64,000 bases of DNA from an uncultured Nitrospirota bacterium (GTDB taxonomy: Bacteria > Nitrospirota > Nitrospiria > Nitrospirales > UBA8639), in NCBI GenBank assembly GCA_937139405.1, contig CAKZPV010000004.1, positions 310,001 through 374,000 on the forward strand. Reading direction: 5' to 3'. The position numbers were made by a program, and so were the translations under genes. How positions within the stretch are numbered: the stretch's first letter is position 1; each line of letters begins with the position of its first letter. Shown one piece after another: positions 45,096 through 56,222 of this stretch. Under the pieces are notes generated by a model. The model searched no databases and had not been told where the DNA came from. It saw only the letters and a program-made list of their open reading frames with translations.

Positions 45096-45237
45096 TCATT
45101 CCATTTTTTTAATACGGCAGAAGAGATTGGTAGCTTTGAGGTTGAAGAATTCGGCAGCGTCGCCCGTGCCATAGTTTTTCCAGTCGGTGGATTGTAAGGC
45201 TTTTTCAATATCGATCTTTTCTCGTAGGCACATATCT
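45096..45237 (-). pseudogene. Remnant of the Fis-type C-terminus of a sigma-54 activator
   Basis: The minus strand encodes DMCLREKIDIEKALQSTDWK, then NYGTGDAAEFFNLKATNL and FCRIKKME before a TGA. It aligns residue for residue with the last 47 or so residues of the intact regulator at 54510 (DMRLREKSNIETALQQTDWK, IYGTGGAAELLGLKPTTLLS). No AAA+ domain is upstream. It is a decayed or partial copy lying just downstream of htpG. Confidence 0.85.
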
Positions 45238-45286
45238 ACACTGAAAGCGGAGATGTGCAGATCTGGTTCGCTCATTAGCTTCGTAT

Positions 45287-47221
45287 CTACAACGTTCGGG
45301 TCATCAGATCAGCTAAGACCTGATTATAACGAACTGGATCGGGAATCGGAGATCCTTCGGCTAATAAACCGTAGCCTAGGAGCAATTCCGCGTAATCGGA
45401 TAACAAGGTGTCCGTCGGATCCTTCTCGAAACGTTCTTTGAGCTTCGTTACGATCGCATGCTCCGGATTCAGCTCCATGATCCGTTTTTGCTTAGGGGCG
45501 CCACCTTTTTGGAGCAATCGCTCGAGCTGGGGGCTGTAATCATTTTCGGCTCCCACCAAACACACCGGGGAGGAAGTGAGGCGGTTGGTTAAACGAACTT
45601 CTTTGATGTGATCGTCCAGCTTTTCCTTCAGCAGTGCGAACACATCTTTGTATTGTTCTTGAAGTGTGTGTAATTTTTCCGTGGTCTCCTTCTGCTCGCT
45701 CTCGTCACCAAGATCAACAGCCCCTTTTCCGACCGACTTGAGTCGTTTTTCTTGGAACTCGAATACATATTGCACCAGAAACTCGTCTACGGGAGATACC
45801 AGATACAGCACTTCGTACTCTTTGGCTTTGAAGGCTTCAAGATGAGGTGAATGTTCCACCACGCTTCGAGATTCCCCGGTGATGTAAAAGATCTCTTTTT
45901 GATCGGGCTTCATTCGTCCCACATAGTCGGCAAGCGTGGTCAATGTTTCAGGATCGTGCGACGAGGCAAACATCAACAAGCCAAGAATTTTGTCTTTGTA
46001 GTCAGTATCAGCAACGCCTTCTTTCAAAGCGTTGCCAAACGGTTCCCAAAACTTGAGATACTGCTCGGCATCATCACGTTGCATTTTTTCGAGCGTCTCG
46101 AGAACTTTTCGGGTAATCCATTTACGGATTTGGTTGATATAGCGATCCTCCTGCAGACGCTGCCTGGAAATATTCAGGGGTAAATCAGCGGAATCCACAA
46201 TGCCCTTCATGAATCGAAGATACCGTGGGAGGAGTTCCTCACAGCGTTCCATGATCATCACCCGTCGCACATAGAGTTGTAGGCCAAACTCTGAGGCGTT
46301 GTAGTGCAGATCACTCTGGGCCTGCGAGGGGATAAACAAGAGAGTTTGGTATTCAATCTGACCTTCGGCGTGAAAACGCAAGGTTTTCATCGGTTCGGAC
46401 CAATCATGCGAGACGTGCTTGTAAAACTCGGCGTATTCTTCATCCGTCACGTCGCTGCGCGTCCAAATCGGTTTCATAGAATTCAGCGTGTTGTCTTCTA
46501 CGACAGTTGAGGTTTTCCCGTCGGGTATCGGCTGCCCTTGGTCATCTTTTTCAACTTCTTCCCGGACAACCTTGAGAATGATCGGAAACGTCACAAAGTC
46601 GGAATAACGCTTCACGGTCCGTGAGAGCACCCATTGCTCAGTAAAATCTTCAATGCCCCCTTCGCTATCGACGGGCAACAACTCCAGGGTCACCGTGGTG
46701 CCAGGAGTGTCGCGGTGCGCGTCTTCAATCGTATATTCGCCTTCCCCCGTCGATTCCCAGCGGGTCGCAGTGTCTTCGCCGGCTCGGCGAGAGATTACCG
46801 TGACCTTACTGGCCACCATGAAGGCGGAATAAAAGCCGACTCCAAATTGCCCGATCAGCTCGTTTGCCGATTCACCGTCTGCATTGTCTTTGAGCTTCTC
46901 CATCAATTCACGTGTGCCGGATTTGGCGATCGTGCCGATATGCGACACAACCTCTTCTCGGCTCATTCCAATCCCGTTGTCGTGGATGCTCAGCGTGCGC
47001 GCTTCCGGATCGGTATCGATTCGAATTTCGAGAGTTTCCCCACCTTTGAGTAATTCCGGCTGCCTGAGGGCTTCGATACGCATTTTATCTAGCGCATCAG
47101 ATGCATTGGATATGAGCTCTCGTAAAAAAATTTCCTTATCGGTGTACAGCGAATGAACCATTAAGTGTAAAAGTCTCTTGGTATCTGCTTGAAAAGTATG
47201 CGTTTGAGCGTCAACTGTCAT
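45287..47221 (-). CDS. htpG: Molecular chaperone HtpG (Hsp90)
   Basis: A full-length 644-residue bacterial Hsp90. N-terminal GHKL ATPase motifs: ELISNASDALDKMR, DNGIGMSREE, GQFGVGFYSAFMVA, GTTVTLEL. The middle domain includes PLNISRQRLQEDRYI, and the C-terminal dimerisation domain is present. ATP-driven cytosolic chaperone for late folding and stress. AAAGGAG precedes the ATG. Just downstream lies a sigma-54-regulator remnant. Confidence 0.97.
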   Translation of the reverse strand: MTVDAQTHTFQADTKRLLHLMVHSLYTDKEIFLRELISNASDALDKMRIEALRQPELLKGGETLEIRIDTDPEARTLSIHDNGIGMSREEVVSHIGTIAKSGTRELMEKLKDNADGESANELIGQFGVGFYSAFMVASKVTVISRRAGEDTATRWESTGEGEYTIEDAHRDTPGTTVTLELLPVDSEGGIEDFTEQWVLSRTVKRYSDFVTFPIILKVVREEVEKDDQGQPIPDGKTSTVVEDNTLNSMKPIWTRSDVTDEEYAEFYKHVSHDWSEPMKTLRFHAEGQIEYQTLLFIPSQAQSDLHYNASEFGLQLYVRRVMIMERCEELLPRYLRFMKGIVDSADLPLNISRQRLQEDRYINQIRKWITRKVLETLEKMQRDDAEQYLKFWEPFGNALKEGVADTDYKDKILGLLMFASSHDPETLTTLADYVGRMKPDQKEIFYITGESRSVVEHSPHLEAFKAKEYEVLYLVSPVDEFLVQYVFEFQEKRLKSVGKGAVDLGDESEQKETTEKLHTLQEQYKDVFALLKEKLDDHIKEVRLTNRLTSSPVCLVGAENDYSPQLERLLQKGGAPKQKRIMELNPEHAIVTKLKERFEKDPTDTLLSDYAELLLGYGLLAEGSPIPDPVRYNQVLADLMTRTL

Positions 47222-47544: not shown

Positions 47545-47943
47545 ATGACTGCCGCCGTCAGTAAACTTGCAAGTACAAGAAAATTGGTGGCTTTAGACGG
47601 CGTTACGTCTCCTTTAGGGTTCAGGAGAGGAGTTTGCATGAAATGTTTCTTCAATAAGTCTGGTGACTGGTGGATGGGTTTTGGCACTGGTTTGTTTTGC
47701 GCGTTGATCGGGCTTATCAGTGGTAAATTGTGGCGGGGTGAGGCCACAGCATTAGAGTTGATCACTGGGGTGAGTTGGGGGCTAGTCATCGCCATTGGTT
47801 TCTTCGTTGGTCTCTATTTAATCAATAAACCGCGCTTAGATCGTGAAGCAGAAGAGCGCCGAAGAATATCCAAGAAATACGAACGGTGGGTAAATGGAGA
47901 GTATACGATTGAGGAACTACAAGACATGAAGACGGAGGAGTAA
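47545..47943 (+). CDS. Hypothetical membrane protein
   Basis: A 132-residue protein. Residues 1-35 are polar, followed by two membrane helices (WWMGFGTGLFCALIGLISG and ELITGVSWGLVIAIGFFVGLYLI) and a charged C-terminal helix (RLDREAEERRRISKKYERWVNGEYTIEEL). ATG at 47545 has AGGAGG upstream; ATG at 47638 also has AGGAGAGG and starts MKCFFNKSGDWW, close to the first helix, so either could be used. No family is recognised. Confidence 0.65.
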   Translation: MTAAVSKLASTRKLVALDGVTSPLGFRRGVCMKCFFNKSGDWWMGFGTGLFCALIGLISGKLWRGEATALELITGVSWGLVIAIGFFVGLYLINKPRLDREAEERRRISKKYERWVNGEYTIEELQDMKTEE

Positions 47944-48284
47944 TGGCTCGAATTCAAGCCGCCCGCTACGTGCAGCCTTGGTTTTTGGTCATGGTCCTAG
48001 GTGAATTATCTGAATGGATTAAAGCAATAACTCAGGCCTGGCCCTACTACACGTGTCATTTTTGGTGATGAACTTGGAGCATCTCCTCACCCGAGCGGTT
48101 TTTCTTGGCTGCGGTCTTGGGGGCAGGCTTGGCGCAGTACATGGAACGGCCTGCTGGGTGCCTGGGGGCTCCAGTGGCAGCCAACTTTCCGTCAGGATCA
48201 TGTGTCTGGCCTCGAGGCCAGAGAGGTACTATTCCTCGCGGGAGTTTGAGTCAATCAGGAAAAATATTTTTTCAGCAAGCCCTA
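47944..48284. other. Intergenic region, no supported gene
   Basis: A short frame begins on the previous stop (ATG at 47943) and ends after 41 codons at tandem TGA codons; the frame then stays open but resembles nothing. The region contains an 18-bp palindrome (48205-48222) and ends at a direct repeat. Confidence 0.4.
48205..48222. repeat. Perfect 18-bp palindrome
   Basis: TCTGGCCTCGAGGCCAGA is its own reverse complement. It sits about 60 bases left of the direct repeat that bounds the helicase island. Confidence 0.9.
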
Positions 48285-48312
48285 AATACGTTTCAATATT
48301 GTTATGAGTTAT
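48285..48312 (+). repeat. Left imperfect direct repeat of the helicase island
   Basis: AATACGTTTCAATA followed by TTGTTATGAGTTAT. The last 14 bases (48299-48312) are identical to 54363-54376, and AATACG plus CAATAT/CAAATAT also match the right copy. It overlaps the helicase stop codon. Confidence 0.7.
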
Positions 48313-51300
48313 TCTATGGTTGATTTTTCCGCAACATCGTCAATCCAATCCTTGAATTGTTCAAGAGTTTTATCGTGACGACGCTTTAATTTGAATACAT
48401 TGCAAATATAATCAACTGGATCTCGTGGGGATTTCTCTAAAGCCAAACGAGCTAAACCTTTTGCCTCAGGGTGCGGAATCTCTGCCCATTCACGCTCATC
48501 ACCCCAAGGGTCTAAACCTCGCCATTGCATTTCATCAACAACCTCGGTGGGTGATAGCCAAACTACTGGTTTATGTATGGCGTCGCGCTTAATGCCTGCC
48601 CAAGGCTTAATTAAATCCAGTATATGTTTGAGCTGCTTCTTACTTGTTCTTGATAACCCATGGAGGTTGGCGATATCCAGTGCCAACTCATGAAGGGTTA
48701 TCCCGTTTTTATCGTTTAATATGGATTTGGCAATATCGACAAGAGTTGCCTTGTAGTCATTATCAAAATAGCGGGTATGATCATATGTGGCTATTTCTGT
48801 ATCTTCCTGGATGCTAGCATCTAGATGAGAAACCACTTCTATGACGGTTTCTTCTGGAGAAGCTTTTATCTGTTCGTCTAGCGCAGAGCTTCTTCTGTCT
48901 TCTTCTATTATCTCATTTAGGCGACGATCAATTTTTCCAATAGCTTCTTCCGGATCTTGGAAGTAGTCAGTGGACCATAGGCGTACCAAGCGCCATCCAA
49001 GATTTTCCAGGATTGCATGGCGTACACGGTCTCGATCTCTAGCTGACGGAGAGCCATGGTATGTAGCTCCATCGCATTCAACACCGGCAAGATATACACC
49101 TGGGTGATCTGGATGAATTATTCCTAAATCGACCCTTAACTTGCTGACACCAATTTGAGTTTGAACTTTCCACCCCTTGTCCCTTAGAGCCCATGCAACA
49201 GCTTGCTCAAAATCACTATCAAATTGATCAACACCATAATTTGCCGTCGCTTGCTCAGCTAAAGCAATTGGGCCTTTTTCAGCAAACTCTAAATAGTGCT
49301 TAAGGTGCTCTACGGCCAAGGCTGATGTGCGACTTAGGTCAATCATAGATGAGTCGAAACTTGAAAACACCAGAACTTCGCTTGTTGCTCTGGTTATAGC
49401 TACATTCAGTCTTCGTTCGCCACCTGATTTATTAAGAGGACCAAAGTTCATACTCATGGTGTGCCCGCCAGCCTCTGTGGGACCGTAACCTAGACTCAAA
49501 ATGATGATATCTCGTTCATCACCTTGAACAGATTCTAGGTTTTTAACAAAGACTCCGTCATAGGTATCTGTTGATTGAAAATATGGTTCTATTTCGGGGT
49601 GCTTTCTTCGAGCATCATCTAGCAAATCTTCTATTGTCCTTTGTTGTTCCGTATTTAATGTCACAACACCTATAGTTTTCGAAGAGTTCGCAGGATTCGT
49701 TAGGCACTTAACAATCTCATCAACAACGGCAGCTGCTTCAATTGGATTGTTGCGTCCTTTACCTTTCGAGTAAACGCCATTCACGCTATGTAGCGTAACA
49801 GCAGATTCTTTAGTATCTGAAGATGGGTAAGTAACAAGCGCGTTCTCGTAATACTTACTGTTAGAGAAGGCTATTAATGTTTCATGCCTGCTTCTATAGT
49901 GTCCTTTTAGCCTTAAATGGGGTAATCGAGCGGCTAATGCCTGGTCCAAAATTGATTCCAGATCTTCTTCATCTGGATCATCCACATCTACCGCACCACT
50001 AAAGAAACTGGTTGGAGGCATCTGCTTGGGGTCGCCTACAACAATGACATTTTTACCCCTTGCTATTGCTCCTACAGAATCCCAGGTAGTCATCTGGGAC
50101 GCTTCATCAAAAACTACTAAATCGAAGCCACTAAAGGCTGATGGCAAGAACTGTGCAACAGATAGTGGTGACATCATCATGCAAGGGCATAAGTCGAGTA
50201 ACCGGCCTCCCATTTCTTTAAATAGGGATCTGATAGGCTTGTGGCGAGTCTTCTTTTGAAGCTCCCTGGTTAATAGCCCAAATTCTTTAGGGCTATCTTT
50301 GGCAAAGGGATCAGGAATGGTTTCAGCTGCGATTGCAGCAACATAGTCACTGGTAGTTTCAGAGACTTCTGCATCAAGCGTTCTAAAATCCTCAATTAAT
50401 TGTTCGTGCGTAGATGCCTTGAATTGTCGTAATTCATCACTTTCATCAATTAATTGTGGTGCTACCCATCGGCAAAATGCTGTTAGAGCCTGGTCTTCTG
50501 CATCATCCGGTAAAACGATTCTTGCTTCTAGACTGTTGGTCAGGTTGTGTAGCTGGTAACCTTCTATAACTTCCTTGGCAGATAACCATTCACTCCATGA
50601 TTTGAATTTAGCTGCATTTGCAATTAGTTGATCAATGGCCGGGTTAATGCTCTCCAAGGACGCATTTTCGTCGAAATCTAACTCTAATTTTTGAGCTTCC
50701 TCGGCTACACACAGATAAGCCTCCCAAAGTCGTTTGAATTCATTTTTCTGGTTAACGATTTTCGAGTTGTCGAGAAAATCACGACCGTCGATAAGCTTGG
50801 ATTTTATAGCTGTGAGCAAAACAGCAGGGTCGTCAGTCAAACCTATCGCTTCAGTTAATGATTTATGAGCTGATTTAGCTCTTGAGGCGGCTTTGTATAA
50901 ATTATCAGGCTTTGTGTCCCATCCTTGCCATATTTTATCTTCTTCAAATTTATCCTTGAGGAAATTAATGTCTTCTTGCAGCTTTGCCGCTTTCTCTATA
51001 TCAAGCAAAATTTCAAGGTCTTTGAATTTTTCGTAGCCTAACTTCTTTGCGGCACCATTAATCTTGAGTTTGGCAAAGAAGCGTTTGAACCAGCTGTCTT
51101 CAGCTTCTCTATAAATACTAATCCAGTCAGAGGTAGGGCTTTTGGCGAGAATTTTTGCATTTACTTGGTGGCCGATTGTTCCTAGGCACTGATCAAATTC
51201 TTGTTTTGTTTCACCTAGCGTACTCAAATCAACCAATAAGTCTTTAATCCCCTTTTTGACGATGTAGCTAATAGGATTAGCTTCGGCAGATTCGATTAAG

Positions 51301-54113
51301 TTTGCCAATTGATCAACACGATTCAGATTACTAGTCGTATTATTTTGTAGCTTGAGGTTAAAGCTAGATGCCAGAATTGCTGCTGAAGGGTAAAGGGCAT
51401 TGATGGCTGATTTGTAACGTGACAAACAATCTACTACCTGGCTTTGCCAGGCATTTGACCAGTTTTTTGCTTTTAGTATTCGAAACTGTGTGGGATCAAG
51501 GCGCGAAATATCGTTGTATGCCAGTGCCGATTTTTTTACGGCATCAAGCATTTGATCTAATTTTTCAGAATTGCTGACTGGCGAAGCATCAAAACCGAGA
51601 GGCCATGTAATATTGAGGGTGTGTTTACCCTTATAAAGTACATCTCTGGCGATGGCATCACGTGCTGAAATACCGTATATAGACTTCTTGTGTAGTGCTT
51701 GCACAAAGCTATTCAGTTTATCCCGTTTTGCTTTTAGCATTTTGACAGAATCAACCCAGCCATCACTTTGGGCATCTTCACGTCTATCTGTAGCAACTCT
51801 AAGTTGCTCAAGAACAGCCTTCTTGTTCGCTTTGTTACTATGTAATTCCAAACACAAGTGGTCTAGTCCCACTTTTTCCATGCGTCTATAAACGACATTA
51901 AGAGCAGCCATTTTCTCGGCGACAAATAATACTTTTCTACCAAGCGCCAGATTGTGGCAAATGATGTTGGCGATTGTCTCTGACTTTCCTGTTCCAGGAG
52001 GCCCTTCTAGAACAAAGTCTTGAGGCCTGCCTGAGGCTTCTACGGCAACTAGCTGGGAGCTATCACAATTTAGTGGTGTGAATACTTTTTCAGGGTCGAC
52101 CTTTTCATCTACTTCATCACGCAGTATGAAACTGGCGTCTTGAACATAGGCATCTTGAGGGTGATCAACAAGGTGTTTAACGAATGGGTTGTCCTTTAGG
52201 TCATCAATCCTATCTTTTAAATCTTTCCACATTAGGTATTTTGCAAAAGAGAAAGATGCCAAGACTAATTCTTCTGCTACCTCAAAGCCTGGCTGCTCAG
52301 CGATTGCTGCTCTAACAGTGTTCCAGACCAGATTTACATCAACGCCAGATTCATCTTCAGGTAATGAATCTCTAAATTGGTTGAGGTCTATGCTGTGCTC
52401 AGCATAAAGGAACTCAATTAATGTCATGTTAAAAATAGGACTTTCATCAGGTAACTGACGTACTTTAATGGGTGCTCTTGCGCTACTTCTTGTCAGTTCT
52501 GCTGGAATAAGAATCAAAGGGGTTCGGTATGATCGACCATCTTCCGGATTTTCTTTCCAGCGAAGCATGCCAAGCACTAAATACAGGGTGTTAGAGCCAC
52601 CTTCCTCTAAATCATTTTTGGCTTTTCTTAATAGGTTTACGGCATTCTGTTCGAGTTTTTTCCTCGACATATTCGCAAGAAGAACATTTTTATTAAGCTG
52701 CTCTAGGGCGTAGTCTCTATGAATATCAGAGCCGACTTGTAGCCTAAAGGTTTCTTCACTACGTTCTTTGTCATTTAAAGGACTTTCTTCTGAAGATAAA
52801 AACCGGAATGAAATACCATCAGCTAAATTATCTTCCATGGAATCGATGTCAGGGCAATATAATTTAATAGCTACAGCTCGATCCTTTAGTGACAACAATG
52901 AATTTCGCTTAGTAAGATCTAAAAGTTTTCTTTGCCACGCATCTATTCGGGTATCTGGCGTTTCAGTAATAACTTGCTCATCTGCTCTCACGGGTGGTAG
53001 AGGAGGAATTACGGGTAAACTTAATTCTGTATCTGACTCAGAAGTTTTCTCGTCAGGCTTTTCTTCAACCGTAAAAATAGGTTTGATTTTTCTAGACCGA
53101 GCCTGCTTGATATCAATTAAGTAAACAAAGTCTTCTTCTTTATCTTCGTTAATTAAGTCTCTAGCATGCGCTTTAGATTGCTCAAAAGTAACTGGGGTGT
53201 CATTGGTAACTAATGTACTTTCAAATAATACTAAATCACGTGCATCAACTCGTTTACGAAGATCCATTGGATCATCGTTGGTTAATATCGGAAAGTTTTC
53301 ATCAATAAGCCAGACGCCAACAAATGCATGATCTTTACCAATAGCAACAACTGGGTTTAATCCCATCAACTCAAGGCAGCTAGCGAATAAAAGAGACGTA
53401 TCAAGGCAGGCGGCTATTTGGGAAGAGCTGATATCAGATGCTAATCGTATGCGCTGTCCTTGTCGTGCAAAACCTTGGGGCGGAGTGACATAAGCTATTC
53501 GTTGAGAAAATATTACATTCCAAAGTGCCGCGGCCATCAAATATGGCTTTTCTCTGGTGTTTGATTGATAGCCATCCACACTTCTACCGTGACCGCCTTT
53601 CTCCAGAACTTCTGCTACCTGTCTTACCAATGACTCAACATATACACCATTTGGTTTTACAAATGCTGCTAGCAAGTCAGGTTGGCGGCTTTCTCCACCC
53701 CAAAAGTTGGCTGGAAGTACATCAATTGAAACTTCTTCAGTTGTTAAGTGTTCTTCTGGGTTATCAGTCGATGAAACTGAAAGCGTGATTGAAACTTTAA
53801 GTTCTTCAGTTAAGTTAAATAGAAAGTCATGCGGAACATTTAGTGGGCGTTTTTGTAATGAAATCGCTTGTCCAGGCCGTATTTCATCAACAGGCCATTC
53901 TTCTGGTGTAAAAATTTCTGGTTGCGATGAAAGTTTGACTACAAGGTTTTTTAAGGGGGCTTGGGTATCTGATAAATCGCCATGTAAAACTGGGTAGTGC
54001 AAGCTTATTGCACGAAACAAAGGATAAGCATTTTGCTGCGCAGCTAAAGAGAAAATTGATAGATGATCAACTGTTAACTGCACCAGAGGTTCAGATTCGT
54101 TACGAGCGTCCAT
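48309..54113 (-). CDS. DUF4011-SF1 helicase-nuclease-DUF3320 protein with N-terminal transglutaminase-like domain
   Basis: A 1,934-residue protein. Order: beta-rich N-terminus (1-150); transglutaminase-like domain with Cys236 (AACLDTSLLFASCLELMG), His262 (KDHAFVGVW) and Asp271; DUF4011 from about 391 (WQRKLLDLTKRNSLLSL); SF1 helicase with Walker A GPPGTGKS (704-711), DEASQ near 1335, GDPKQMPP, HYRSRHE and NVAITRA; a PD-(D/E)XK/Vsr-like nuclease near 1630-1720 (VDLGIIHP, VECDGATYH, RDRDRVRHAILENLGWRLVRLW); and DUF3320 near 1780-1860. Large proteins with this helicase-nuclease order occur in defence islands, so anti-phage or anti-plasmid action is likely. The gene is AT-richer than its neighbours and bounded by direct repeats. 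Confidence 0.92.
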   Translation of the reverse strand: MDARNESEPLVQLTVDHLSIFSLAAQQNAYPLFRAISLHYPVLHGDLSDTQAPLKNLVVKLSSQPEIFTPEEWPVDEIRPGQAISLQKRPLNVPHDFLFNLTEELKVSITLSVSSTDNPEEHLTTEEVSIDVLPANFWGGESRQPDLLAAFVKPNGVYVESLVRQVAEVLEKGGHGRSVDGYQSNTREKPYLMAAALWNVIFSQRIAYVTPPQGFARQGQRIRLASDISSSQIAACLDTSLLFASCLELMGLNPVVAIGKDHAFVGVWLIDENFPILTNDDPMDLRKRVDARDLVLFESTLVTNDTPVTFEQSKAHARDLINEDKEEDFVYLIDIKQARSRKIKPIFTVEEKPDEKTSESDTELSLPVIPPLPPVRADEQVITETPDTRIDAWQRKLLDLTKRNSLLSLKDRAVAIKLYCPDIDSMEDNLADGISFRFLSSEESPLNDKERSEETFRLQVGSDIHRDYALEQLNKNVLLANMSRKKLEQNAVNLLRKAKNDLEEGGSNTLYLVLGMLRWKENPEDGRSYRTPLILIPAELTRSSARAPIKVRQLPDESPIFNMTLIEFLYAEHSIDLNQFRDSLPEDESGVDVNLVWNTVRAAIAEQPGFEVAEELVLASFSFAKYLMWKDLKDRIDDLKDNPFVKHLVDHPQDAYVQDASFILRDEVDEKVDPEKVFTPLNCDSSQLVAVEASGRPQDFVLEGPPGTGKSETIANIICHNLALGRKVLFVAEKMAALNVVYRRMEKVGLDHLCLELHSNKANKKAVLEQLRVATDRREDAQSDGWVDSVKMLKAKRDKLNSFVQALHKKSIYGISARDAIARDVLYKGKHTLNITWPLGFDASPVSNSEKLDQMLDAVKKSALAYNDISRLDPTQFRILKAKNWSNAWQSQVVDCLSRYKSAINALYPSAAILASSFNLKLQNNTTSNLNRVDQLANLIESAEANPISYIVKKGIKDLLVDLSTLGETKQEFDQCLGTIGHQVNAKILAKSPTSDWISIYREAEDSWFKRFFAKLKINGAAKKLGYEKFKDLEILLDIEKAAKLQEDINFLKDKFEEDKIWQGWDTKPDNLYKAASRAKSAHKSLTEAIGLTDDPAVLLTAIKSKLIDGRDFLDNSKIVNQKNEFKRLWEAYLCVAEEAQKLELDFDENASLESINPAIDQLIANAAKFKSWSEWLSAKEVIEGYQLHNLTNSLEARIVLPDDAEDQALTAFCRWVAPQLIDESDELRQFKASTHEQLIEDFRTLDAEVSETTSDYVAAIAAETIPDPFAKDSPKEFGLLTRELQKKTRHKPIRSLFKEMGGRLLDLCPCMMMSPLSVAQFLPSAFSGFDLVVFDEASQMTTWDSVGAIARGKNVIVVGDPKQMPPTSFFSGAVDVDDPDEEDLESILDQALAARLPHLRLKGHYRSRHETLIAFSNSKYYENALVTYPSSDTKESAVTLHSVNGVYSKGKGRNNPIEAAAVVDEIVKCLTNPANSSKTIGVVTLNTEQQRTIEDLLDDARRKHPEIEPYFQSTDTYDGVFVKNLESVQGDERDIIILSLGYGPTEAGGHTMSMNFGPLNKSGGERRLNVAITRATSEVLVFSSFDSSMIDLSRTSALAVEHLKHYLEFAEKGPIALAEQATANYGVDQFDSDFEQAVAWALRDKGWKVQTQIGVSKLRVDLGIIHPDHPGVYLAGVECDGATYHGSPSARDRDRVRHAILENLGWRLVRLWSTDYFQDPEEAIGKIDRRLNEIIEEDRRSSALDEQIKASPEETVIEVVSHLDASIQEDTEIATYDHTRYFDNDYKATLVDIAKSILNDKNGITLHELALDIANLHGLSRTSKKQLKHILDLIKPWAGIKRDAIHKPVVWLSPTEVVDEMQWRGLDPWGDEREWAEIPHPEAKGLARLALEKSPRDPVDYICNVFKLKRRHDKTLEQFKDWIDDVAEKSTIE

Positions 54114-54227
54114 ACCCCTTCATCCCTTTCTATAAATTTATTGTTTATTAGAAGTGATAGGGTCAGGCCTGCGTAAATGCAATAATGCTCTTACGCAAAT
54201 CTGGCATAACCCTCCCCCAAATCCTCA
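54114..54227. promoter_or_regulatory. Upstream region of the helicase gene with an inverted repeat
   Basis: TGCGTAA (54170-54176) and TTACGCA (54191-54197) form a 7-base inverted repeat about 60-85 bases before the start codon, preceded by AGGGTCAGGCCT. It may be a regulator site or the edge of a REP-like element. Confidence 0.35.
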
Positions 54228-54297
54228 CAATGCCATAGATTTTCCAGTCGATTTACTTTAGGGCCATTTCAATATTAGCTTTTTCTCGAAGGCGCAT
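54228..54297 (-). pseudogene. Second remnant of the Fis-type tail of a sigma-54 activator
   Basis: The minus strand reads MRLREKANIEMALK, stop, IDWKIYGIV, aligning with MRLREKSNIETALQQTDWKIYGTG of the intact regulator 280 bases away. One in-frame stop and loss of the rest make it a relic. It lies inside the interval bounded by the direct repeats. Confidence 0.8.
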
Positions 54298-54345
54298 GGA
54301 CGGCTTTAGGAGGAAACCAACGAATGTTCTCAAAGCGTTTCTATG

Positions 54346-54376
54346 AATACGCGTCAAATATCTTGTTATGAGTTAT
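54346..54376 (+). repeat. Right imperfect direct repeat of the helicase island
   Basis: AATACGCGTCAAATATC followed by TTGTTATGAGTTAT. It matches the left copy at 48285-48312, with 14 identical bases at its end. It lies 134 bases beyond the regulator stop. Confidence 0.7.
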
Positions 54377-54509: not shown

Positions 54510-56156
54510 CTAATAGGCCTTTACAATTCCCATTTTTTTGATGCGGGAGAGGAGCGTGGTGGGTTTGAGACCGAGGAGTTCCGCGGCTCCACCGGTGCCG
54601 TAGATTTTCCAATCGGTTTGCTGTAAGGCAGTTTCAATATTGGATTTTTCGCGTAGACGCATATCTTCGTCGGTGAGCACATTGGTAGTGCTGTCGCCAT
54701 TTTTCTTGATGGGCGTTTTGGTTGAGGCTCCACTGGCTTGCGGAACTGGTAGATCGAATTTCACTGAGCCGCAGCGAGACGAGATGACCGCACGTTCAAT
54801 GATATTTTGCAATTCTCGCACGTTACCCGGCCAATGATAGTTCTGCAATTTTAAGACTTCGGCCTGGGTCAATTCTCTTCCTGTGCAATGAAGTTTCTTC
54901 CGAACCAAAGCCATGAATTTGGCAGCAAGCAAGGGGATATCCTCTATTCGATTTCGGAGTGGAGCCACTTCAATGGGAAACACATTCAACCGGTAATAGA
55001 GGTCTTGTCGAAACCGTTTGGCCTCCACTTCTTGCACAAGCTTCCGGTTCGTGGCCGCAATGATGCGGACATTCACTTTCCGCGTCGCTTCCTCCCCTAC
55101 CCGCTCATATTCGCCTTCTTGTAAGACGCGTAATAACTTGCTTTGCATCTCTAAGGGAATTTCTCCAACTTCATCCAGAAACAGGGTCCCGCCATCGGCG
55201 GCTTGAAAGCGCCCGGCCCGATCTTTCATTGCCCCGGTGAAGGCACCCTTGGCATGGCCAAAGAATTCACTTTCATAGAGTTCTCTTGGAATGGATGCAC
55301 AGTTGACGCGTACGAGCGGATGATCTTTTCGTTGACTGCGGCGATGAATTTCTCGCGCAACCAATTCTTTGCCGGTGCCTGATTCGCCGGAGATAAGTGC
55401 TGTGGCATCCGTAGGAGCCACGAGTTCGATTTGTTCCACCAGATTGGCAATGGCAGGACTCTGGCCGACAATCTCACCAAAGTTCTGTGCTTCTAAGACT
55501 TCTTCTTTGAGGAAAGTGTTTTCCAGTTCCAATTGGGCTTTCAGCTGTTCGATTTCTTCGAACGCTCGCGCGTTCGCGATGGCGACGCCCACATGATCGG
55601 CAATCATACGAAACCAGAGCGTGGCTTCATGCGTGACCAATTCTCGATCAAACACGGCCAGCGTGCCCAAGACTTCTCCATTGTAGATAATAGGTTGACC
55701 GTGAAATCCGCGAATGCCTTCTTGCTTGGCCCATTCAGGTTTCGCAATCCATTCCAGATTATTTTCCAACTCATTGATCACGAGCTGTTCGCCAGTCTTT
55801 CCGATACGCCCCACCTTACAGGCGCCTATAGGGAATCGAGCAAAATACCCATTGGTGTTTGACCATTCTGTTTTGTCCGGCCCACGGGACTGACCGGCAC
55901 TCGCAACCAAATGAAGACACCGCGTCTGATCCGGACAGTCTTCTTGAAACCGGCAGGTCGCACAGATATCGCCGGGGCGAATCAGCCAAATCCTTGCGAG
56001 GACGACCGTGGGTCTGTCTGCGAGTCGCCGCACAATGAGCCACAACAGATCATTCAGCGATCGTTGCTGTGCAATATCCAACACCAAGCATTTGAGGGAA
56101 TCTAACGTCGTCGGTGTTGAACACTCCGGCGTCTGTGAATCAACAGTGGTAGTCAT
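54510..56156 (-). CDS. Sigma-54-dependent activator with GAF sensor
   Basis: About 548 residues from the ATG at 56156. Domains: GAF-type sensor (about 20-205) containing the cysteine cluster CATCRFQEDCPDQTRCLHL; a linker coiled coil; AAA+ domain with Walker A GESGTGKE, GAFTGA (sigma-54 contact), Walker B GTLFLDEVGEIP and arginine finger region; and a Fis-type HTH (DWKIYGTGGAAELLGLKPTTLLSRI). This is the FhlA/NorR-like architecture. The frame extends to a GTG at 56210, but that codon lies within an operator palindrome, so the later ATG is preferred. It is divergent from the oxidoreductase operon that it most likely activates. Confidence 0.93.
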   Translation of the reverse strand: MTTTVDSQTPECSTPTTLDSLKCLVLDIAQQRSLNDLLWLIVRRLADRPTVVLARIWLIRPGDICATCRFQEDCPDQTRCLHLVASAGQSRGPDKTEWSNTNGYFARFPIGACKVGRIGKTGEQLVINELENNLEWIAKPEWAKQEGIRGFHGQPIIYNGEVLGTLAVFDRELVTHEATLWFRMIADHVGVAIANARAFEEIEQLKAQLELENTFLKEEVLEAQNFGEIVGQSPAIANLVEQIELVAPTDATALISGESGTGKELVAREIHRRSQRKDHPLVRVNCASIPRELYESEFFGHAKGAFTGAMKDRAGRFQAADGGTLFLDEVGEIPLEMQSKLLRVLQEGEYERVGEEATRKVNVRIIAATNRKLVQEVEAKRFRQDLYYRLNVFPIEVAPLRNRIEDIPLLAAKFMALVRKKLHCTGRELTQAEVLKLQNYHWPGNVRELQNIIERAVISSRCGSVKFDLPVPQASGASTKTPIKKNGDSTTNVLTDEDMRLREKSNIETALQQTDWKIYGTGGAAELLGLKPTTLLSRIKKMGIVKAY

Positions 56157-56170
56157 ACTTGAAACGATAA

Positions 56171-56222
56171 ACGAAATTTCGTGTATGTGCAATTTATTTT
56201 CGTGTAACACGAAATTTCGTGT
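56171..56222. promoter_or_regulatory. Palindromic upstream activator sites
   Basis: ACGAAATTTCGT occurs at 56171-56182 and, extended to a perfect 16-base palindrome ACACGAAATTTCGTGT, at 56207-56222. Between them TTTCGTGT adds a further half-site that pairs with the next ACACGAAA around a single base. Centres lie about 138 and 100 bases upstream of the predicted sigma-54 start, the usual distance for enhancer-binding proteins, and immediately upstream of the activator's own start. Confidence 0.75.

What the first reader, a model, noticed from the sequence alone, without database searches (positions are those of the whole stretch)
48285..54376. Single-gene defence-like island bounded by imperfect direct repeats
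The 5.8-kb helicase-nuclease gene is AT-richer than its surroundings, has no partner genes, and lies between repeats 48285-48312 and 54346-54376 that share AATACG and an exact 14-mer TTGTTATGAGTTAT. This looks like an integration event with the stop codon lying in the left repeat.
Basis: partly seen in the sequence, partly recalled or inferred. Interest (0 to 1): 0.65.

Follow-up and report, generated by a model that had tools for sequence, protein, structure and literature searches.

The report
Horizontally acquired ProA defence gene in hotspot
A bacterium has recently picked up, most likely from a marine gammaproteobacterium, a single large gene of a named anti-phage family, and it sits in a chromosomal spot where related species keep different defence genes; the short repeats first thought to frame it are not the insertion borders.

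Summary
The 1,934-aa gene (48309-54113, minus strand) is an intact single-gene defence protein. It passes the NCBIfam "anti-phage ProA" cut-off (1832.7 vs 1500 bits) and matches PADLOC candidate PDC-S37. It is a recent transfer: 92.8% DNA identity over 5.8 kb to a gammaproteobacterial genome, nested in marine Gammaproteobacteria in a tree, absent from all 20 other genus genomes searched, while the host's HSP90 is only 44-48% identical to its best matches in three such genomes. The direct repeats are real and above chance but are not borders: the left copy came with the gene, the right copy lies about 175 nt outside the right junction (54131-54155, against a native palindromic repeat). On the left, native DNA ends at 48047-48051, where four relatives also break; 230 nt of unknown origin follow. 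The setting is a defence hotspot between a sigma-54 regulator and htpG. Relatives carry OLD/TOPRIM, PDC-S31, PDC-S33, MNT/HepT or DUF2442/DUF4160 genes there, and insertions leave displaced copies of the regulator's last 45-390 nt. No integrase is on the contig. New domain call: an Ig-like domain plus a transglutaminase-like fold (invariant Cys236) precede helicase and nuclease.

The parts
48309..54113 (-). ProA-family anti-phage gene, 1934 aa: Ig-like (about 10-135), transglutaminase-like (about 139-343, C236/H262), DUF4011 (396-569), SF1 helicase (AAA_11/AAA_12, Walker A 704-711), REase_MTES_1575 nuclease (1635-1732), C-terminal region
48280..54131 (.). DNA with detectable homology to gammaproteobacterial genomes (L005 to 48280, L006 to 54131) = transferred core
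48285..48312 (+). left copy of the reported direct repeat; holds the stop codon; also present in L005 15802-15829 after the homologue's stop, so donor-derived
54346..54376 (+). right copy of the reported direct repeat; about 175 nt outside the right junction; origin unknown (not found elsewhere in the genus)
48051..48279 (.). 230-nt orphan segment (54.6% GC, contains palindrome TCTGGCCTCGAGGCCAGA) between the native left flank and the donor DNA; no relative found
48033..48049 (+). CAGGCCTGGCCCTACTA, end of native left flank; in G031, G005, G006, G007 homology to the window ends at this same point and different DNA (IS in some) follows
54155..54212 (-). native dispersed palindromic (REP/MITE-like) repeat ending CAGGCCTGACCCTATCA at the right junction; folds as hairpin, z -4.7
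54228..54298 (-). displaced and partly deleted fragment of the regulator gene's 3' end
45101..45239 (-). second, older displaced copy of the regulator's 3' end, downstream of htpG; an HSP90-downstream tail copy is also present in G008 and G001
54510..56210 (-). sigma-54-dependent (GAF-AAA+-Fis) regulator; conserved right border of the hotspot; its 3' end is what is duplicated
45287..47221 (-). HSP90/HtpG gene on the left side of the hotspot
47545..47943 (+). 132-aa ORF of unknown function conserved in relatives next to htpG (native left flank)

Best explanation
48309-54113 is a horizontally acquired, intact, single-gene anti-phage system of the ProA family (PADLOC PDC-S37). The immediate source was a gammaproteobacterium or an intermediate carrying a gammaproteobacterial allele. 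It entered a defence hotspot downstream of a sigma-54 regulator gene. Insertion was not at the reported direct repeats: the right junction is in 54131-54155 against a native palindromic repeat, and the left native flank ends at 48047-48051. In this genus the hotspot grows by one-sided recombination at the regulator's 3' end: new DNA joins homologously through the conserved HTH-coding 3' end and illegitimately on the other side, so each addition pushes an old 3' 'tail' downstream. Likely protein function (inferred): an SF1 helicase translocates on invading or replicating phage DNA, its MTES_1575 endonuclease domain cuts, and the N-terminal Ig-like/transglutaminase-like module is a sensor, regulator or cysteine-peptidase-type effector. 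SHOWN: family, domains, transfer, absence in the genus, junction positions, hotspot with varied cargo, tail duplication. INFERRED: anti-phage activity of this copy, order of biochemical events, one-sided recombination as the cause of the tails. The route of the ProA insertion itself is the least certain step.
For: NCBIfam NF058533 anti-phage ProA 1832.7 bits vs cut-off 1500, residues 23-1905; PADLOC PDC-S37 1122 bits; Pfam DUF4011, AAA_11/12, MTES_1575. DNA 92.8% identical over 48280-54077 to L005 and 80% to L006; tree places the window with L005 (SH-aLRT 99), then L006 (100), inside Gammaproteobacteria; host HSP90 only 44-48% identical to the best match in three of those gamma genomes; absent in 20 of 20 other genus genomes; Ka/Ks 0.16 vs L005. 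Junctions. Hotspot: G008 has an OLD/TOPRIM ATPase at the same place; G014/G016 PDC-S31 and MNT/HepT; G012/G016 RelA_SpoT (PDC-S33 in G016); G004 DUF2442/DUF4160. Tail displacement: in G004 and G012 the displaced tail plus downstream DNA aligns with the undisturbed regulator-rapA junction of G019. Tails contain only the last 45-393 nt and never 5' parts. Of 61 window genes only the regulator's 3' end has off-gene copies. None of 14 Phage_integrase matches in the genome lies on this contig. In L005 ProA follows a type I R-M set and in L006 it lies near a tyrosine integrase.
Against: No experiment here shows that this copy works. No same-species empty site was found, so the ProA insertion was bounded only by comparison with other species and donors. 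The two regulator tails in the window flank older insertions; neither directly abuts the ProA junction, so the ProA event may have used another route (both junctions lie at ends of a dispersed palindromic repeat). The 230-nt orphan and the right direct-repeat copy are unexplained. The host genome is a draft of 51 contigs and read coverage over the junctions could not be checked. The host's own phylum was not named by any tool.
Confidence: 0.72

Rival explanations
1. Direct-repeat-bounded mobile element: the gene was integrated by a recombinase or transposase at a 14-30 nt target, leaving the two direct repeats as scars.
For: Repeats exceed chance; 14-mer exact only twice in the genome.
Against: Left copy is part of the donor DNA (L005 15802-15829) and L005 has no second copy upstream of its gene; right copy is outside native repeat 54155-54212 and tail 54228-54298; no recombinase gene; left native flank ends 235 nt before the left copy.
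Confidence: 0.08
2. Repeat-mediated insertion: ProA came in by recombination or transposition at the dispersed palindromic REP/MITE-like repeat, whose ends face inward at both junctions (48033-48049 and 54155-54171). This differs from the best explanation only in the route of the last step.
For: Both native flanks end in CAGGCCTGRCCCTAYYA, and this pattern has only these two exact matches in the genome; the same break point occurs in four relatives, with different DNA after it; right copy folds as a hairpin.
Against: The pattern was drawn from these two copies, so its rarity is partly circular; the exact shared inverted word is only 8 nt; the left copy does not fold as a hairpin; no RAYT or transposase gene at the locus; 230 nt orphan between left motif and donor DNA.
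Confidence: 0.35
3. Regulator tails are att-type scars of a site-specific integrase that targets the regulator's 3' end, and ProA arrived on such an element, now decayed.
For: 3' ends of genes are classical integration targets (general knowledge); tails always keep the 3' end; cargo is defence-like.
Against: Tail 5' edges vary (no fixed crossover); no integrase recognised by eye among ORFs of the sampled islands, and none on the host contig; htpG 3' and 5' ends are duplicated in the same way in G031 and G007, so the effect is not limited to one target.
Confidence: 0.15
4. Assembly chimera: gammaproteobacterial DNA wrongly joined into this contig.
For: Draft genome; foreign composition; junctions close to a repeated motif.
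Against: No motif copy was seen at the donor-like gene ends, so there is no evident shared sequence to cross over; two independent false joins inside a contig of at least 374 kb would be needed.
Confidence: 0.04

Closest known systems
NCBIfam NF058533 anti-phage protein ProA (PADLOC PDC-S37)
   Same: Full-length match (23-1905 of 1934), score above the curated cut-off, single gene, no partner
   Different: Found here in a lineage with no other close copy; the N-terminal transglutaminase-like fold is described here from a model, not from the family record
Hhe (NCBIfam NF042953, PADLOC Hhe)
   Same: DUF4011 domain-containing single-gene antiphage protein; strong partial homology
   Different: 776 bits vs cut-off 2000: below threshold, so a relative and not a member
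Core defence hotspots such as cDHS1 of Pseudomonas aeruginosa (PMC10250203)
   Same: Conserved flanking genes with varied defence cargo between them; cDHS1 is itself flanked by a DUF4011 gene
   Different: Here the border is a sigma-54 regulator whose 3' end is repeatedly duplicated; cargo mostly single genes or pairs; no mobile-element machinery seen
Nuclease-protease pairs in antiviral immunity (PMC12799240, abstract only)
   Same: Nuclease linked to a putative peptidase-type domain
   Different: There two genes with a trypsin-like protease activating a pro-nuclease; here one chain with a transglutaminase/PNGase-like fold; activity untested

Membership tests
Anti-phage ProA (NCBIfam NF058533) | Score at or above the curated cut-off (1500 bits) over nearly the whole length | tested here: met
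   1832.7 bits, 23-1905 vs model 2-1897 of 1903
Anti-phage ProA (NCBIfam NF058533) | DUF4011 + SF1 helicase + MTES_1575 nuclease with intact motifs | tested here: met
   Pfam hits over cut-off; GPPGTGKS 704-711, DEAS 1336-1339, D1662 and E1679 invariant or nearly so in 25 homologues
Anti-phage ProA (NCBIfam NF058533) | Protection against phage | not testable with these tools
   needs a plaque assay
Hhe | Score above NCBIfam cut-off 2000 | tested here: not met
   776.3 bits
Transglutaminase/PNGase-like (papain-like) fold in the N-terminus | Fold match | tested here: inconclusive
   AF2 pLDDT 86; VIA Z 9.2 to yeast PNGase 3esw over 157 residues and 8.7 to 3kd4; Foldseek best E 3e-4 to transglutaminase 2 but TM about 0.2
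Transglutaminase/PNGase-like (papain-like) fold in the N-terminus | Cys-His-acid triad | tested here: inconclusive
   C236 invariant at the start of helix 236-249; H262 in 24 of 25 just before strand 263-268 (Q in L005); acidic residues near 280-281; spatial geometry not measured
Mobile element bounded by direct repeats (target-site duplication) | Repeats at both junctions of foreign and native DNA, absent from the donor | tested here: not met
   left copy in donor-like L005; right copy outside the junction
Integrase-type genomic island | Integrase gene at one end | tested here: not met
   no PF00589 match on the contig
Defence hotspot | Conserved borders with different defence cargo in related genomes | tested here: met

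The most novel reading that the evidence does not exclude
The HTH-coding 3' end of a sigma-54 regulator gene works as a reusable docking sequence through which this genus stacks single defence genes without an integrase, each addition leaving a displaced 3' tail, so that the tails form a readable record of past acquisitions.
Probability: 0.3. Interest if true: 0.65.

Novelty: new member of a known kind. Interest (0 to 1): 0.42.

Why it matters
It shows a very recent transfer of a whole 5.8-kb defence gene from Gammaproteobacteria into a distant lineage, and locates a defence hotspot with a readable scar. The clean filled-versus-empty comparisons (G004 and G012 against G019) make it testable whether defence genes can be gathered by homology at one gene's 3' end without an integrase. 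The transglutaminase-like domain gives a concrete mutational target in a widespread antiphage family.

Tried and rejected
Direct repeats as target-site duplication: rejected. Right repeat as native genus sequence: no support, the region has no clear relative in 20 genus genomes. Tails as remnants of whole duplicated regulators: no 5' part was ever found, though G004 contig 178 keeps 131 codons. tRNA target: none in the window. Integron attC reading of TAACTCATAACAA: core sites do not fit (by eye). Tail as a folding recombination site: no stable fold, z -0.18. Origin of the 230-nt orphan: only weak hits in the own genome, none in the loci held. Literature: no held paper names PDC-S37; a link between ProA and the DefenseFinder system Prometheus is only a guess from the name. 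N-terminus by Pfam: nothing above cut-off, only a weak DUF553 hit in one homologue.

Full report
WHAT WAS CHECKED. The repeats exist as described. TTGTTATGAGTTAT is exact at 48299-48312 and 54363-54376 and nowhere else in the 4.46-Mb genome, with two more places at one mismatch. The surrounding 28/31-nt similarity exceeds 1000 mononucleotide shuffles and 620 real comparison windows, and a shared exact word of 14 nt or more is seen in 5 of 1444 comparable pairs. Gene GC is 41.6% against 46.6% for the rest of the window. The gene has no partner between 47943 and 54510.

WHAT THE GENE IS. The 1934-aa product carries DUF4011, SF1 helicase AAA_11/AAA_12 and REase_MTES_1575. It passes the NCBIfam cut-off for 'anti-phage protein ProA' (1832.7 vs 1500 bits) and falls far below that for Hhe (776 vs 2000). 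PADLOC calls it PDC-S37. Helicase and nuclease motifs are invariant or nearly so among 25 homologues. Pfam finds nothing above cut-off in the first 390 residues. An AlphaFold2 model (pLDDT 86) shows a beta-sandwich at about 10-135 and an alpha/beta domain at about 139-343. The latter aligns best with yeast PNGase (Z 9.2, 157 residues) and a putative protease (Z 8.7), and Foldseek's top hits are transglutaminases, although with low TM-scores. C236 is invariant at a helix start and H262 precedes a strand, as in transglutaminase-like enzymes. The nearest relative L005 has Q at 262, so catalysis may not be essential. This domain reading is moderately supported.

WHERE IT CAME FROM. The closest sequence is a gammaproteobacterial chromosome, 92.8% identical in DNA over 48280-54077; next is a Cellvibrionaceae MAG at 80% up to 54131. 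The tree puts the window with L005 (99) and then L006 (100) inside a marine gammaproteobacterial clade. None of 20 other genus genomes has it, and the only full-length relative in the order is 37% identical. The host's HSP90 is only 44-48% identical to the best match in three of the donor-like genomes. Ka/Ks against L005 is 0.16 at Ks 0.23, so the gene has been under selection. In L005 it follows a type I restriction set and in L006 it lies near a tyrosine integrase.

THE JUNCTIONS. Left: a native flank (132-aa ORF and about 100 nt) is conserved in four relatives, and in all four homology to the window ends at 48047-48051, just after CAGGCCTGGCCCTACTA; different sequences follow, an IS6-family (IS240-type) transposase in G031 among them. 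Donor homology starts at 48280; the 230 nt between have no known relative. Right: donor homology ends at 54131. From 54155 outward lies a native dispersed palindromic repeat (55 nt at 80% identity in G008, 50.9 bits against a shuffle maximum of 31.9; hairpin z -4.7), then a fragment of the regulator's 3' end (54228-54298), and only then the right copy of the direct repeat. The left copy is found after the stop codon of L005. The reported repeats therefore do not mark the insertion ends. Why the right copy resembles the donor's 3' flank remains unexplained; a remnant of an earlier related insertion is possible.

THE SETTING. In this genus the space between the sigma-54 regulator and the next conserved gene varies. 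G008 has an OLD/TOPRIM ATPase there, G014 and G016 PDC-S31 and MNT/HepT proteins, G012 and G016 a RelA_SpoT protein (PDC-S33 in G016), and G004 a DUF2442/DUF4160 pair. Displaced copies of the regulator's 3' end lie among these genes. In G004 and G012 the displaced tail and the DNA after it align with the undisturbed regulator-rapA junction of G019, so DNA was inserted there and the tail duplicated. Tails are 45-393 nt, always from the 3' end, with varying 5' edges. Of 61 window genes tested at both ends, only the regulator's 3' end has such copies. htpG shows the same effect at its 3' end in G031 and at its 5' end in G007. No integrase lies on the contig. One-sided homologous recombination with an illegitimate second join explains variable tails without an integrase; this is inference.

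HOW IT PROBABLY WORKS. By family and domains: DNA translocation by the helicase and cleavage by the MTES_1575 domain, with the N-terminal module sensing or controlling the response. Anti-phage activity of this copy is inferred from the family.

VERDICT. A recent cross-clade acquisition of a known single-gene defence system, in a defence hotspot for which no earlier description was found here (the literature was not searched for this hotspot specifically).

Noticed in passing
L155 8435-8626 (G031): A 192-nt copy of the htpG 3' end lies downstream of htpG, beyond an inserted pyridoxamine-oxidase-like gene: the same scar as at the regulator.
   Followed up: partly
L156 15745-16014 (G007): The htpG 5' end and upstream DNA are duplicated on the far side of an inserted rapA gene.
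   Followed up: partly
window 54155-54212 and loci L173, L181, L183, L184: A dispersed palindromic repeat (REP/MITE-like) of this genus ending CAGGCCTGACCCYATYA, 0-4 exact copies per genome; no mobilising gene identified.
   Followed up: partly
L005 protein position equivalent to 262: The closest homologue has lost the conserved histidine of the putative transglutaminase-like triad (Gln instead).
   Followed up: no
window 54070-54130 (start of the gene): The first codons differ strongly between the window and L005 while the rest is 92% identical; the window resembles L006 there, which hints at a mosaic 5' end.
   Followed up: no
window 48205-48222: Perfect 18-nt palindrome TCTGGCCTCGAGGCCAGA in the orphan segment.
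   Followed up: no
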